Origin: an uncultured Bacteroidales bacterium
GTDB taxonomy: Bacteria > Bacteroidota > Bacteroidia > Bacteroidales > WCHB1-69
Length of the DNA stretch: 64,000 nt
Assembly: GCA_946413585.1 (NCBI GenBank)
Contig: CAMKLG010000009.1
Location: forward strand, 1-64,000
Direction of reading: 5' to 3'
Under the pieces are notes generated by a model. The model saw nothing but the letters and a program-made list of their open reading frames with translations, had not been told where the DNA came from and made no database searches. Below are positions 1-46,366 of the stretch, one piece after another. The position numbers were made by a program, and so were the translations under genes. Position 1 is the first letter of the stretch. Every line of letters begins with the position of its first letter.

Positions 1-58
1 GTTTAGGGTTTAGAGTTTAGGGTTTAGAGTTTAGGGTTTAGAGTTTAGGGTTTAGGGT
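1..58. repeat. Heptanucleotide array (GTTTAGG/GTTTAGA)
   Basis: About eight 7-bp units alternate between GTTTAGG and GTTTAGA, starting at the window edge, so the array may extend leftwards. The units resemble plant-type telomere repeats. The same motif recurs between genes at 17.36-17.43 kb and 35.64-35.67 kb, so it is an interspersed intergenic repeat and not a chromosome end. From 60 to 198 the DNA stays low in complexity, with many degenerate AACCAAC/CTAACTAA words, and holds no gene I can support. Confidence 0.9.
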
Positions 59-198
59 TATACGGTTACACGGTTAAGGATGGAGGTGCCAACAGCACAG
101 CAACCAACAATGTAACCAACCAACAGCCGAAGGCTAACTAACATGAAATAACTAACACATAGTAACCAACAACGAAGCTCACCAACAGAAAAACAAGA

Positions 199-3117
199 AT
201 GTCAGGATTTCTTTCGAAGATTATTGGGAAAATTTTGGGCGATGGAAGCGTTCCGTTGCATGATGTGGCGGTGATTTTGCCGAATAGGCGTGCGCAACGG
301 TATTTGTTGCAGGGTCTTTCTGAACGGAACGGGCGGAAGCCGATGTTCGCGCCGCAGATTTTCCCTATGGAAGAGTTTGTGGGGTGGCTCTCACCCCTCA
401 AGGTTATTGACCCTGTCACCCAGTTACTTCGTTTACGCACCGTGACGCGCGGCTATCCGGGTTCTCGTTTCGAGTTACATCAGCTGCTCTCTTGGGGCAC
501 AGCCTTCCTGAAAGATATCAGTGACATGGATATGCAGCTGCAAAATGTGCCAGCCATTCTGCGTGAGTCGGCCAAGGCGGCTCAGTTTGAGATACCCTTT
601 GGCAAAGACGAGCTCTCCGAAACAGATCGTGAGAAGCTGATATTCAACGAATTACTTGCCGATATTTTCGGTCATTTGAAGACTTTGTTGCAACAAAATG
701 GAGAGGCATACGAAGGCATGATTTATCGCGACTGTGTCGAGAATATTGCCGCTTATGCACAGAAAGTGCCCTTCAAGAGGTTGATTTTCGCTGGATTCTA
801 TGCTCTCTCGCCTGCTGAGCTCCGCATTATCCGCTATTTTCAGGAACATTTCCAGACGGAAGTCTATTTCGATGTGGATCCTTTCTATTGCCAGTTGGAT
901 GAGCGCACGAAAGGAACCCAATTGCAAAGGGAGCCTGCCTTTTTTATCCAGCGTGACTGCAAACAACTGAATATCGACCCTAAAGAATTGACCTTTTACG
1001 ATGACAATTTCGCATCGATACCCAAAAATGTGAAGATTATTTCCACTTCCAAGAATATGCGGCAGATTTACTGTGCGATTCGCGAGGTGGAACGTATTCA
1101 AAAGGAAAAAACAGCGCAACTGGCAGATAAAGAATCGATTGTAGATATGTCGGATACGGCCGTGGTATTATGTGATGAGAATCTGCTGTTCCCGTTTTTG
1201 ACAGCCTATCGTCCTGATAGGGTGAGGGTTAACGCCACGATGGGTTTCCCTTTCAATGCAACGCCCGTATGGTCGCTGTTGTTGCAGGTGATCGCGGTCT
1301 ATGAGTCTGCGTTTTCCCTTACAGCTGATGATGCGGCAGAGTTGTCCTTCAGTGGTGAGCAGGTGCAGCGTCTCTCAAACCACGAGCTGCTTCGTGCCGA
1401 AAACCCCTCCCCGGCGTTTTTCACAACGGTGATGCGTTATTCGCAACTTCCTCAAAAAGAGTACTTTGATAATTGCAGGAAGACAGAAATCGGTCGTTAC
1501 TTTCCAAGAGTGTTAAGACATTTTTGCCAGTGCGCGGCCTGTTTGACAGAAGTGAAGATTTATCAGCAGTTGTGGCAGGAAGTAGATAAGAAACTTACTG
1601 ATACACAATCTCTTTTTGAAGCTTGTTTTGCGGCGGAAGAAGTGGTGGATTTCGCCTTTGCAAAGTACTCCGTCACGAAGGCACTCGGGGAAATTTCCAT
1701 CGCGATGCCAGGCGACCCGGATAAGGGATTGCAGGTGATGGGACTTTTGGAAACACGTATGATGGACTTCAAGAACATCATCATGATTTCGGTGAACGAG
1801 GGGCTTCTGCCCAAAGGCATCACCTATGATTCGTTGCTCCCGTTCGATTTCAAGTACAAATTTGATGGTGAGGAGGCGTTGCCCAATTACCTTTACCAGG
1901 ATCAAGTTTATGCCTATCACTTTTTCCGACTTTTGCAACGCGCTGAGGATGTGACGCTTATCTATAACAGTGCTTCAGATGCCACTCTGGCGGAAAAGAG
2001 TCGGTTCATTTCTCAGTTGGAGTATGAGGTGAAAGCGCAGTCGTTGGAGAAAACGATTCAAATTGAGCATGAAAAGTTGGATTTTGATCTCGTTTTGCCA
2101 GTTCGAGGACCTGTTTCTATGCCCAAAACGGCTGAAATTATGCAAAAACTCCATCAATATGCTTTTTCCGCCTCTTCGTTGCAATCGTACATCCGTTGTC
2201 CGTTGCAGTTCTATTTTCAACATTTGATCAAGATTCGTGAACCGCAGGCCTTGACCGACAATCTGGAAGCGTATGAGTTAGGCACTGTCATTCACGGAGT
2301 CTATAAATTGGCGTTCGATGTCATTGCGAAAGAACCAGATGCAAGTCGGTATAGTGCTATTTTACAGCAGTTTATAGATCATTGTGACGAGTTGGTTTGT
2401 CAAGAAATACGTAAGCTTCAGGGGCGCGAGTCGCTGACCGACGAAGCGTTAAATCAAGGAGCTTGGCGCATCAATCGAAAAATGATCGATGAGACGGTTT
2501 GTCAGTATTTGGAAATAGCAAAGACAGAGCTGATTACGCTTCCTTGGAAGGTGCTCGCCAACGAAATGCCAGTAGATATTCGGGATTATTTGGTGATTCC
2601 GATAGACGGCCGGTCTTCCTTCCCCGTTCGTATGGTGGGCAGTTTGGATCGCGTGCAGAAAAACGGTGCGGAAGTGCAGATTTTGGACTACAAGACCGGC
2701 AAGGTGGAAGAAGGAAAGCTGAAAATCAAGGTGAAAAGTGGCACTGAAAATGACGAAGAGGTGCAACGTGCTGCCATTAAAACCATTTTCACTGATGTCA
2801 ACCACGACAAGCTGTTCCAATTGGTGATGTATGCTCTGATGTACGATCATCTGACGAATGGGCAAACACCGAATATCCGGGCGGGTATCATTAGTACGCG
2901 CGAGGTGAATAAGAAAAACCCGGCATATATGCTGCCGGGTAGTATCTTGAATGATTATAACATACTGACTTATAAAACTTTACTCAAGGAAGAACTGAAT
3001 CTCTTATTCTGCCAAATCTTTGACGACAGCACTCCGTTCACACAAACCGACGACGAGAAGGTGTGTCGGAATTGTGATTTTGTTCATTTGTGCGGGAGGC
3101 AGACAGTGAGTAGTTGA
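199..3117 (+). CDS. AddB-like PD-(D/E)XK nuclease family protein
   Basis: This 972-residue protein resembles the AddB/RecB-type nuclease subunits of Bacteroidota, which process DNA double-strand ends for recombination in the cytoplasm. The C-terminal nuclease domain shows the PD-(D/E)XK core ILDYKTG (Asp830, Lys832). It also has the four cysteines expected for an AddB-type iron-sulfur staple: Cys667 in CPLQFYF, then Cys956, Cys959 and Cys965 in CRNCDFVHLC. The N-terminal part has the inactive-helicase-like PNRRAQRYLLQG region; I see no good Walker A motif, as in AddB. The length fits the family (about 950-1000). The start is the first ATG of the open frame and follows an A-rich leader. No addA partner lies in the window; it could be to the left. 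The gene converges on folD across a heptamer array. Confidence 0.85.
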   Translation: MSGFLSKIIGKILGDGSVPLHDVAVILPNRRAQRYLLQGLSERNGRKPMFAPQIFPMEEFVGWLSPLKVIDPVTQLLRLRTVTRGYPGSRFELHQLLSWGTAFLKDISDMDMQLQNVPAILRESAKAAQFEIPFGKDELSETDREKLIFNELLADIFGHLKTLLQQNGEAYEGMIYRDCVENIAAYAQKVPFKRLIFAGFYALSPAELRIIRYFQEHFQTEVYFDVDPFYCQLDERTKGTQLQREPAFFIQRDCKQLNIDPKELTFYDDNFASIPKNVKIISTSKNMRQIYCAIREVERIQKEKTAQLADKESIVDMSDTAVVLCDENLLFPFLTAYRPDRVRVNATMGFPFNATPVWSLLLQVIAVYESAFSLTADDAAELSFSGEQVQRLSNHELLRAENPSPAFFTTVMRYSQLPQKEYFDNCRKTEIGRYFPRVLRHFCQCAACLTEVKIYQQLWQEVDKKLTDTQSLFEACFAAEEVVDFAFAKYSVTKALGEISIAMPGDPDKGLQVMGLLETRMMDFKNIIMISVNEGLLPKGITYDSLLPFDFKYKFDGEEALPNYLYQDQVYAYHFFRLLQRAEDVTLIYNSASDATLAEKSRFISQLEYEVKAQSLEKTIQIEHEKLDFDLVLPVRGPVSMPKTAEIMQKLHQYAFSASSLQSYIRCPLQFYFQHLIKIREPQALTDNLEAYELGTVIHGVYKLAFDVIAKEPDASRYSAILQQFIDHCDELVCQEIRKLQGRESLTDEALNQGAWRINRKMIDETVCQYLEIAKTELITLPWKVLANEMPVDIRDYLVIPIDGRSSFPVRMVGSLDRVQKNGAEVQILDYKTGKVEEGKLKIKVKSGTENDEEVQRAAIKTIFTDVNHDKLFQLVMYALMYDHLTNGQTPNIRAGIISTREVNKKNPAYMLPGSILNDYNILTYKTLLKEELNLLFCQIFDDSTPFTQTDDEKVCRNCDFVHLCGRQTVSS

Positions 3118-3205
3118 GAGGGTTGAGGGTTGAGAGTTGAGGGTTGAGAGTTGAGGGTTGAGAGTTGAGGGTTGAAGGTTGAGGGTTGAGGGTTGAGGGT
3201 CAAAG
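3113..3205. repeat. Heptanucleotide array (GTTGAGG/GTTGAGA)
   Basis: About twelve 7-bp units of GTTGAGG, GTTGAGA and one GTTGAAG begin at the stop codon of the nuclease gene and fill most of the space to the 3' end of folD. There is no gene and no clear terminator hairpin here. Confidence 0.9.
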
Positions 3206-3230
3206 TCAAAGTTCAATAGAGGATAGAACA

Positions 3231-45880: not shown

Positions 45881-45943
45881 CAATTAGTAGTTAGCAGTTA
45901 GCAGCGATGAATGATGAATGATGAATGATGAATGATGAATGTC
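45876..45943. repeat. Heptanucleotide array switching TTAGCAG to GAATGAT
   Basis: From the DUF5618 stop codon the units read TAGTTAG, CAATTAG, TAGTTAG, CAGTTAG, CAGCGAT, then GAATGAT four times. All are in one continuous 7-bp phase, although the unit sequence changes completely half-way. Confidence 0.93.
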
Positions 45944-46010
45944 ATGGCGGCCCTGCAACGTGCAGGCATCGCTGTCCGTGGGAGCGTTCCCGCGCGTGAG
46001 CGTCATGTTG

Positions 46011-46307
46011 TCATTCGTCACGTGTCAAGGTCAGGATTTCCTCTTCCGTGAGTCCGGTGATTTTCGTGACGATGGTGGTGTCCAGACCTTCGACAAGCAT
46101 GTTGAGGGCGAGCTGGCGTGTCCTTTCCTCGTGTCCCTGTTCTAGACCTAGTTCGCGTCCCTATTCAAGACCGTATTCGCGCTCGCACATCAATGATTCC
46201 TTCACGTCGGCGTTCTCCAGGACATCTCTGACATAAATCTTCTTTTCCATATCCGTAAGGTTTGATATTAGACACTCGTTATAGAAGCGCTGGTAAATTG
46301 GATCCAT
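46011..46307 (-). pseudogene. Remnant of an Rpn-family (PD-(D/E)XK) transposase-like nuclease
   Basis: Reading the minus strand from the ATG at 46307 gives MDPIYQRFYNECLISNLTDM, then EKKIYVRDVLENADVKE, CEREYGLE, an in-frame TAG (46161-46163, codon 49), then GRELGLEQGHEERTRQLALN and TKITGLTEEEI to a TGA at 46011. The region resembles the C-terminal tail of Rpn/TIGR01784-type proteins: a repeated GxExGxExG hinge followed by a 'TGLTEEEI' helix. The N-terminal nuclease domain is absent, so this is a truncated and interrupted relic of a mobile nuclease. Heptamer arrays flank it on both sides. Confidence 0.7.
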
Positions 46308-46314
46308 ACGGGAG

Positions 46315-46366
46315 GAGGGAATAGGGAATAGTGAATAGTGAATAGTGAATAGTGAATAGTGAAAAC
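46315..46366. repeat. Heptanucleotide array (GGGAATA/GTGAATA)
   Basis: Two GGGAATA units are followed by about five GTGAATA units at 7-bp spacing, just upstream of the Rpn remnant. The remaining gene-free DNA to 46799 is AT-rich and contains the promoter of the giant gene. Confidence 0.9.

What the first reader, a model, noticed from the sequence alone, without database searches (positions are those of the whole stretch)
1..46366. Interspersed intergenic arrays with a strict 7-bp period but many different unit sequences
At least a dozen intergenic arrays share a 7-bp period while their units differ: GTTTAGG (1, 17358, 35639), GTTGAGG (3113), AGTTAGC (21001, 45030, 45876), GGTTAAA (25415), CCCTCGA (30096), GAATGAT (38205, 38553, 45905), GTCATAC (45296), GTGAATA (46315). 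They tend to start at or just after a stop codon. A shared period without a shared sequence suggests a common generating mechanism (slippage with a 7-nt step, or an enzyme copying a 7-nt template) and not spread of one element. Heptamer STRR repeats are known in filamentous cyanobacteria; I know of no established equivalent in Bacteroidales.
Basis: seen in the sequence. Interest (0 to 1): 0.72.

Follow-up and report, generated by a model that had tools for sequence, protein, structure and literature searches.

The report
Seven-base repeats at gene ends
A gut bacterium related to ruminant species carries many short tandem repeats that mostly have a seven-base unit but dozens of different unit sequences, often placed right after a gene's end or right before a gene's start; copying slippage in seven-base steps probably makes them, which is a known kind of repeat in an unusually rich form.

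Summary
In a 1.25 Mb sample of this 2.98 Mb draft Bacteroidales genome, a lag-match scan found 312 tandem arrays with periods 3-20, of which 195 have period 7 (next: 14, with 25). One shuffle of 452 kb gave 1; 200 kb of E. coli gave none. The 181 arrays outside genes fall into 57 unit classes. The excess holds across the genus, though some species also have many period-8 arrays.

Of 132 arrays between co-directed genes, 69 overlap or begin within 25 bp of the upstream stop codon, mostly G-rich on the sense strand; 33 others lie just before the next start codon, nearly all C-rich and G-poor. At the 7 of 17 orthologous sites with intact edges, lengths differ by multiples of 7 in 6 cases (one zero); elsewhere units are replaced while period 7 stays. 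No RVT_1 reverse transcriptase domain is found in this genome or its closest relative, so a telomerase-like enzyme is not supported.

Best reading: heptanucleotide simple-sequence repeats made by slippage in 7-bp steps, with selection on translation influencing place and strand. Such repeats are known from Xanthomonas, Nostoc, Beggiatoaceae and a few Bacteroidetes. Less expected: many unit families per genome, in-register unit drift, position-specific unit variation and a shared unit vocabulary.

The parts
1..59 (+). heptamer array GTTTAGG/GTTTAGA, 8.4 copies; lies at the very start of contig C9
   Evidence: TRF; contig position
3118..3200 (+). heptamer array GAGGGTT (TTGAGGG), 11.9 copies, directly after the stop of the PD-(D/E)XK gene 199-3117, in the convergent gap to FolD
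   Evidence: TRF; Pfam; relative L101 holds a version 13 bp longer with other unit order
17366..17424 (+). heptamer array GGTTTAG, about 8.6 copies, 6 bp after the stop of the NamZ-like gene 16145-17359
   Evidence: TRF; Pfam; +7 bp in G051
21002..21034 (+). heptamer array AGTTAGC in the convergent gap between 18065-20923 (+) and 21149-25381 (-)
   Evidence: TRF; G051 has a 131-bp array of other units in this gap
21040..21059 (-). heptamer array AACAGCT (opposite orientation to 21002-21034)
   Evidence: TRF
25415..25460 (+). heptamer array GGTTAAA/GGTTAGA (period-7 row 25415-25447) in the gap between genes 25438-26067 (-) and 21149-25381 (-), overlapping the 3' end of the former (TetR-type regulator)
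   Evidence: TRF; Pfam; an array at this site in 5 of 7 relatives, with shifting units
30105..30124 (+). short heptamer array GACCCTC, 2.9 copies, ending 14 nt before the start of 30139-31671
   Evidence: TRF; ORFs
35641..35671 (+). second-order heptamer array TAGTTTAGGGTTAA
   Evidence: TRF (14-mer)
38202..38261 (+). heptamer array GAATTAG changing in register to GAATGAT, overlapping the stop of 35707-38205
   Evidence: TRF; sequence; +21 bp in G051
38553..38583 (+). heptamer array AATGATG
   Evidence: TRF; +42 bp in G051
45033..45093 (+). irregular heptamer array GTTAGCA
   Evidence: TRF
45296..45313 (+). short heptamer array GTCATAC, 2.6 copies
   Evidence: TRF
45875..45904 (+). heptamer array AGTTAGC at the stop of 45476-45880
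   Evidence: TRF; gene call
45906..45941 (+). heptamer array GATGAAT, perfect, directly after the previous array with a different unit
   Evidence: TRF; sequence
46319..46363 (+). heptamer array GAATAGT, 6.4 copies
   Evidence: TRF

Best explanation
These are heptanucleotide simple-sequence repeats. Each array arises locally and expands or contracts by slippage (or unequal exchange) in steps of 7 bp. Point mutations followed by re-expansion make the units drift within a fixed 7-bp register, so the period outlives the sequence. Arrays are mostly tolerated between genes only. Selection on translation then influences place and strand: upstream of start codons the G-poor, A/C-rich strand that keeps the initiation region unfolded, and units with stop codons on the sense strand. 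Shown here: the period excess, little sharing of long irregular strings between sites, 7-bp length steps at intact sites, unit drift and replacement at orthologous sites, and the positional and strand bias. Inferred: that slippage is the molecular event, and that the strand bias upstream of starts comes from selection for an unstructured leader. Not explained: why 7 and not 5, 6 or 8. The published suggestion (Mrazek et al. 2007, as reported in PMC4679880 and PMC4692102) is that 7 nt is the length in contact with the polymerase.
For: Period spectrum: 195 of 312 arrays in 1.25 Mb; one shuffle of 452 kb, 1; E. coli 200 kb, 0 at periods 3-20; G051 117 period-7 arrays in 436 kb, at most 17 for any other period from 4 to 14. 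Length steps: of 17 orthologous sites, 7 have all edge bases intact and 6 of those differ by a multiple of 7, one of them 0; the exception, +13, reads by eye as 7 plus a 6-bp edge duplication. Local duplication: identity between units falls with separation, from 5.99 of 7 for neighbours to 5.10 at 10 units, in 44 long arrays. Period kept while units change: in the gap 20924-21148 the window has GTTAGCA-type units, G051 at 95.6% identity of the adjoining 500 bp has one continuous 131-bp array drifting from GAGGGTC to AAGTTCA to ACGTCAC. Gene-end placement: per kb of gap, tandem 1.70, convergent 1.23, divergent 0.53 in G000; 2.86, 3.23, 1.17 in G051. Start-proximal arrays C>G against G>C on the sense strand 30:3 (G000), 8:1 (G051), 5:3 (genus and near relatives). 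Flipping the array in silico makes the initiation region more stable in 36 of 39 cases, mean MFE -3.4 as found and -12.6 kcal/mol flipped. Initiation in Bacteroidetes, which lack Shine-Dalgarno sequences, is tuned by mRNA structure (PMC6847099, abstract).
Against: Neutral slippage does not predict the positional pattern inside units: in 68 GTTTAGG-type arrays the arrays with single-base variants at positions 1-7 number 0, 10, 1, 7, 4, 47, 21, and the pattern recurs in G051 and in the genus and near relatives. Nor does it predict that 41 of 79 arrays in the genus and near relatives use unit classes found here, against 8.8 +/- 2.7 for permuted units; common descent of arrays could explain this but was not shown. 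The G-rich sense bias after stop codons (49:19, 30:11, 31:10) has no clear reason in this model. Ten of the 17 orthologous pairs had changed edges, and 8 of those 10 differ by lengths that are not multiples of 7; the edge criterion was set after the alignments had been seen. Irregular 35-mers are shared by 3 array pairs, slightly above the 0.8 +/- 0.9 of shuffles. No strain-level or time-course data were available.
Confidence: 0.7

Rival explanations
1. The arrays are functional multi-site binding elements: a single-stranded RNA or DNA binding protein reads a motif at 7-nt spacing in leaders (NNAACNN) and trailers (GTTNNNN, GAATNNN), acting on translation or mRNA stability, and selection keeps the spacing.
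For: Position-specific conservation inside units; vocabulary shared with relatives; placement mostly 2-14 nt before starts (31 of 33 start-proximal arrays) and at stops. PMC4679880 (passages) suggests Csp-, S1- or Csr-type regulators for TAACTGA repeats and cites CspB binding heptamer repeats.
Against: Unit sequence at the same site turns over between close species; site occupancy is patchy (left gap 2 of 7 relatives, right gap 5 of 7); separate neighbouring arrays do not share a register (1 of 14 assigned pairs, a test biased against register).
Confidence: 0.17
2. Arrays are added by an enzyme copying a 7-nt template, such as a reverse transcriptase or telomerase-like RNP.
For: Constant period with many units; the most variable positions lie just before one invariant G in the GTTTAGG family, as a template boundary might give (inference).
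Against: No RVT_1 match in this genome or in G051, nor in the array-rich G012, G017 and G050; 31 of 40 genus genomes without one; 57 unit classes would need many templates; no growth polarity along arrays, P=0.72 over 47 arrays; some species also have many period-8 arrays.
Confidence: 0.03
3. Arrays spread as copies of a mobile or recombining element.
For: Shared vocabulary within and between genomes; 3 array pairs share an irregular 35-mer, unit-order shuffles give 0.8 +/- 0.9.
Against: Three pairs among 92 long arrays is little if copying were common. Shared flanks were not searched for.
Confidence: 0.05
4. Assembly or binning artefact.
For: Arrays lie at 4 of 25 contig starts examined against 24 of 1065 background windows, so assembly tends to break in them; the genome is 87.8% complete with 5.6% contamination.
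Against: Arrays with distinct flanks lie at orthologous sites in other genomes, among them RUG312; whether all were assembled by one pipeline is not known.
Confidence: 0.02

Closest known systems
Heptanucleotide long simple-sequence repeats of prokaryotes (Mrazek et al. 2007; not read, as reported in PMC4679880 and PMC4692102 passages)
   Same: Heptanucleotides are the most abundant class among long repeats in most genomes surveyed; polymerase slippage proposed.
   Different: The number of unit families per genome, the in-register unit drift and the shared vocabulary were not in the passages I read.
GGGNATC repeats of Xanthomonas and GGGGA(C/T)T repeats of Nostoc (PMC4692102, abstract and passages)
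   Same: Heptamers; G-rich strand within 50 bp after stop codons on the sense strand or upstream of ORFs on the antisense strand; under-represented between divergent ORFs; conserved plus variable unit positions; length variation between close relatives.
   Different: That paper studies one G-quadruplex-forming unit type per organism; here dozens of units, many without GGG (GAATGAT, GTTAGCA).
TAACTGA direct repeats of Beggiatoaceae, Cyanobacteria and five Bacteroidetes (PMC4679880, abstract and passages)
   Same: Mostly intergenic heptamers, forward repeats give stop codons in all three frames, often directly upstream of start codons; other heptamer repeats noted beside some in Bacteroidetes.
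   Different: A single unit is studied there and its one-base variants are rarely repeated; its class (AACTGAT) is not among the 57 classes listed here, though one array of that class is in the G011 sample.
Constant-size, variable-sequence tandem repeats of Bacillus (PMC8161180, abstract and passages)
   Same: Same logic: repeat size constant, sequence variable, species-specific.
   Different: Units of 20-21 or 52 nt, not 7.
Cyanobacterial STRR heptamers (recalled; three tandem heptanucleotides of Calothrix are mentioned in PMC4692102 passages)
   Same: Several tandem heptamers in one genome.
   Different: Not compared here.

Membership tests
Heptanucleotide simple-sequence repeat | Head-to-tail units of 7 bp in excess of chance | tested here: met
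Heptanucleotide simple-sequence repeat | Mostly outside coding sequence | tested here: met
   180 of 195 arrays with under half their length in called genes, (own gene caller)
Heptanucleotide simple-sequence repeat | Length varies in whole units between relatives | tested here: met
   6 of the 7 sites with intact edges (one with no change); the other 10 of 17 sites had changed edges and 8 of them no multiple of 7
Xanthomonas/Nostoc G-rich heptamer repeats | Placement after stops on sense strand, before starts on antisense strand | tested here: met
Xanthomonas/Nostoc G-rich heptamer repeats | G-quadruplex-forming GGG units | tested here: not met
   GAATGAT, GAATTAT, GTTAGCA families lack GGG
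TAACTGA repeats | Unit TAACTGA | tested here: not met
   Class AACTGAT absent from the 57 classes in the G000 sample
RT/telomerase-made repeats | A reverse transcriptase gene in the genome | tested here: not met
   RVT_1 absent in G000 and G051, (draft genome, one family only)
RT/telomerase-made repeats | A template RNA for the unit | not tested
   Only a general Rfam scan of the window was run; its one hit is Acido-Lenti-1
Phase-variable simple-sequence repeats | Length change switches expression | not testable with these tools
   Needs culture or transcript data

The most novel reading that the evidence does not exclude
Members of this Bacteroidales genus have an active, sequence-aware system that creates or reads 7-nt arrays at gene borders: one G and its neighbours are fixed, one or two positions are free, the vocabulary is shared among relatives although orthologous sites change units, and the two gene borders carry opposite strands. 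The arrays would be 7-nt-spaced binding platforms for leader and trailer RNA.
Probability: 0.15. Interest if true: 0.75.

Novelty: new variant of a known kind. Interest (0 to 1): 0.47.

Why it matters
The preference of bacterial repeats for a 7-bp step was noted in 2007 (as told in PMC4679880 and PMC4692102), and I found no tested cause in the papers seen. This genus offers one genome with an estimated several hundred arrays (195 in 42% of it), a close relative with array turnover at 81-100% flank identity, and species ranging from no match to more than a thousand matches of a GTT-anchored period-7 pattern. That is a natural set for finding the genetic cause of the 7-bp step and for asking what the arrays do to translation in bacteria that do not use Shine-Dalgarno pairing.

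Tried and rejected
Reverse transcriptase origin: RVT_1 searched in 40 genus genomes, 9 with a match (8 over the cut-off), none in G000 or G051. Dispersal of array copies: 3 shared irregular 35-mers against 0.8 +/- 0.9. Hairpin pairing between arrays in one gap: complementarity 3.65 against 3.73 +/- 0.17 in shuffles over 26 tandem gaps, no signal; same-strand similarity 4.00 against 3.64 +/- 0.16, slight. Common register of neighbouring separate arrays: 1 of 14 assigned pairs in register, 5 pairs unassigned (biased, since in-register neighbours tend to merge into one array). Growth from one end: none, P=0.72. General base skew as cause of the strand bias: outside arrays the skew near starts and stops is slight, for example C 0.18 and G 0.13 at 10-20 nt upstream of starts and C 0.19 and G 0.20 in the first 10 nt after stops. 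Plant telomere likeness of TTTAGGG (recalled): only one of 57 classes, taken as coincidence. Literature searches listed no paper on such arrays in Bacteroidales beyond those cited; I saw listings, and the library holds open-licence papers only.
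Full report
WHERE IT IS. The window is bases 1-64000 of contig C9 of a 2.98 Mb, 125-contig draft genome, 87.8% complete with 5.6% contamination. Its FolD protein is nearest to FolD of uncultured Bacteroidales: RUG312 at 94% identity, then genomes at 86-90%, several with rumen or abomasum of sheep, yak or goat in their titles (records of the window's own or a very near genome may be left out there). 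The relative G051 has a contig of the same length, 34,993 bases, as the RUG312 contig, so G051 is probably RUG312. Genes near arrays in the window are ordinary: a PD-(D/E)XK protein, FolD, a dihydrouridine synthase, NamZ, a PKD protein with a type IX secretion signal and a TetR-type regulator (8 proteins scanned).

THE OBSERVATION. A lag-match scan that assumes no unit gave, in the same 452 kb, 74 arrays with period 7 and at most 9 with any other period from 2 to 20; one local shuffle gave 1. In 1.25 Mb (window plus 60 stretches, 42% of the genome; the later stretches were chosen by contig number, several of the first 20 because one search had shown a repeat there) it gave 195 period-7 arrays of 312 with periods 3 to 20, covering 8664 bp; 180 of the 195 are intergenic. 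Periods were scanned apart, so one stretch can count at both 7 and 14; period 14 comes second with 25. The same scan on 200 kb of E. coli K-12 gave none at periods 3-20. A GTTTAGG trimer pattern (up to 3 mismatches) has 526 matches in the whole genome and 6 for the reversed control.

SPREAD. Period 7 also dominates in G051 (117 arrays in 436 kb, at most 17 for any other period from 4 to 14), in FolD loci of near relatives L101-L122 (25, next 8) and in those of more distant ones, mostly Bacteroidota, L123-L180 (33, next 7); of 21 relatives sampled by handle, four (G015, G020, G022, G023; 6.5 to 23.2 kb each) had none. Over 40 genus genomes a GTT-anchored pattern gives 9965 matches at period 7 and 1450 at period 8; 37 of 40 genomes have more at 7, but G012, G001, G003 and G009 also have many at 8. 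The reversed control of the period-7 pattern is not small (112 in G000 against 695; larger than the pattern in G015), perhaps because it is itself a period-7 pattern with another anchor. Over 198 genomes of the phylum 147 have at least one period-7 match, very unevenly, and in many the reversed control is as frequent. So the period is strongly preferred but not absolute, and this pattern is a rough gauge only.

ANATOMY. Arrays per kb of gap: tandem 1.70 (132 arrays), convergent 1.23 (22), divergent 0.53 (16); 14 lie inside called genes and 11 at stretch ends were dropped from the context counts. In G051 the densities are 2.86, 3.23 and 1.17, in the genus and near relatives 1.08, 0.54 and 0.34. 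In tandem gaps, 37 arrays overlap the upstream stop codon, 32 begin within 25 bp of it, 33 lie within 25 bp of the downstream start and 30 are in between. Of the 33, 31 end 2-14 nt before the start codon; A stands at -3 in 24 of 39 starts with an array ending within 25 nt. Read on the sense strand, stop-proximal arrays are G-rich against C-rich 49:19 and start-proximal arrays C-rich against G-rich 30:3; in G051 30:11 and 8:1, in the genus and near relatives (L189-L228 and L102-L122, which may hold some genomes twice) 31:10 and 5:3. G000 and G051 share some sites and are not independent. This is the layout reported for Xanthomonas and Nostoc repeats (PMC4692102, abstract and passages).

UNITS. 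The 181 arrays outside genes fall into 57 unit classes. On the G-rich strand many can be written GTTNNNN or GAATNNN (reading). Within families, variation sits at one or two positions: for GTTTAGG the numbers of arrays with a single-base variant at positions 1-7 are 0, 10, 1, 7, 4, 47, 21 (68 arrays); with a tighter family limit G051 gives 0, 1, 1, 6, 0, 15, 8 (20 arrays) and the genus and near relatives 0, 0, 0, 1, 0, 5, 1 (5 arrays). Deviations inside arrays are concentrated at few positions beyond a uniform null (2868 against 2006 +/- 48), although duplicated variants inflate this. Stop codons are enriched: 134 units on the plus and 132 on the minus strand of 181, against 98 and 81 for permuted letters. 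By class, sense stops exceed the null in all four classes of G000, for example 28 of 33 start-proximal against 12.6 +/- 2.4, whereas antisense stops there are at the null. In the genus and near relatives the class 0-25 bp after stops does not show it (8 of 23 against 10.1 +/- 2.0). Units of arrays overlapping a stop contain one partly by construction. Of arrays in the genus and near relatives, 41 of 79 use a class found in G000 (8.8 +/- 2.7 expected from permuted letters), in G051 96 of 117 (12.7 +/- 3.3), in distant loci 6 of 33 (3.5 +/- 1.6).

HISTORY. Of 153 array clusters, 17 had both flanks in fetched G051/L101 sequence. Seven had all 8 edge bases intact on both sides; length differences are -7, +14, 0, +13, +7, +21 and +42 bp. 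The +13 case contains, by eye, a 6-bp duplication at its edge. The other ten have changed edges; 8 of them are not multiples of 7, and in one (L078) the relative has no array. The edge criterion was set after the alignments had been seen. In the gap 20924-21148 the window has GTTAGCA-type units; G051, with 95.6% identity over the adjoining 500 bp of gene, has a continuous 131-bp array whose unit drifts from GAGGGTC through AAGTTCA and AAGTTTC to ACGTCAC; 2 of 7 relatives have an array there. In the gap 25382-25437 an array is present in 5 of 7 relatives with shifting units. Beyond the FolD 3' end, relatives show by eye heptamers of quite different units (for example L106, L109, L114, L120), and others none; the downstream gene differs in the more distant ones. 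Unit similarity falls with distance along arrays, long irregular strings are rarely shared between sites (3 pairs) and there is no growth polarity.

MECHANISM. Together these fit slippage in 7-bp steps with later drift. Loops of 5 nt or more generally escape mismatch repair (recalled), which would allow units of 5 and more to expand, but the choice of 7 remains open; the suggestion that 7 nt is the polymerase contact length is from Mrazek et al. 2007 as told in PMC4679880 and PMC4692102 (passages). The strand choice before start codons is probably a filter: turning the arrays round makes the initiation region more stable in 36 of 39 cases and less stable in 2, mean -12.6 against -3.4 kcal/mol, and initiation in Bacteroidetes is tuned by structure and A at -3, with AUG rare around starts (PMC6847099, abstract). 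Because G-rich RNA pairs with U as well as C, this energy test largely reflects composition. Stops in all three sense frames, which a 7-nt unit holding one stop gives for free, would keep upstream translation from running into the next gene (inference). The G-rich bias after stops is left without a good reason.

REVERSE TRANSCRIPTASE. RVT_1 matches 9 of 40 genus genomes but not this one nor G051. A missing contig could hide a gene in this draft; G051 is listed as 100% complete. Other enzyme families were not searched.

ASSEMBLY. Four of 25 contig starts lie in or near arrays (first 130 bp) against 24 of 1065 background windows, so the longest arrays are probably missing or cut. They are unlikely to be products of assembly, since other genomes have them at orthologous sites.

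VERDICT. A real and strong feature, best seen as an unusually rich form of a known class of repeats. The unit grammar and the shared vocabulary are what plain slippage explains least.

Noticed in passing
window 38620-38673 (-): Match to Rfam Acido-Lenti-1 RNA (38.1 bits, gathering 37), shortly after the heptamer array 38553-38583.
   Followed up: no
window 33514-33857: 153-bp tandem repeat, 2.2 copies, 92% match, inside ORF 31810-35538.
   Followed up: no
window 35538-35574: Perfect 12-bp repeat GGGTCGATGAAT, 3.1 copies, starting at the last base of ORF 31810-35538: a stop-anchored array that is not period 7.
   Followed up: no
window 46707-63998 and 6173-16090: Very long ORFs: 5764 aa with no stop before the window ends, and 3305 aa.
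   Followed up: no
genus genomes G012, G001, G003, G009: Many GTT-anchored period-8 matches (398, 119, 171 and 159) beside the period-7 ones.
   Followed up: partly
G088 and G213 (other families of the class): Period-7 GTT anchors with almost free four bases between (for example GTTGATCGTTGGCCGTTGGTTGTT in G088), looking more degenerate than slippage arrays; in G088 the reversed control is more frequent than the pattern.
   Followed up: no
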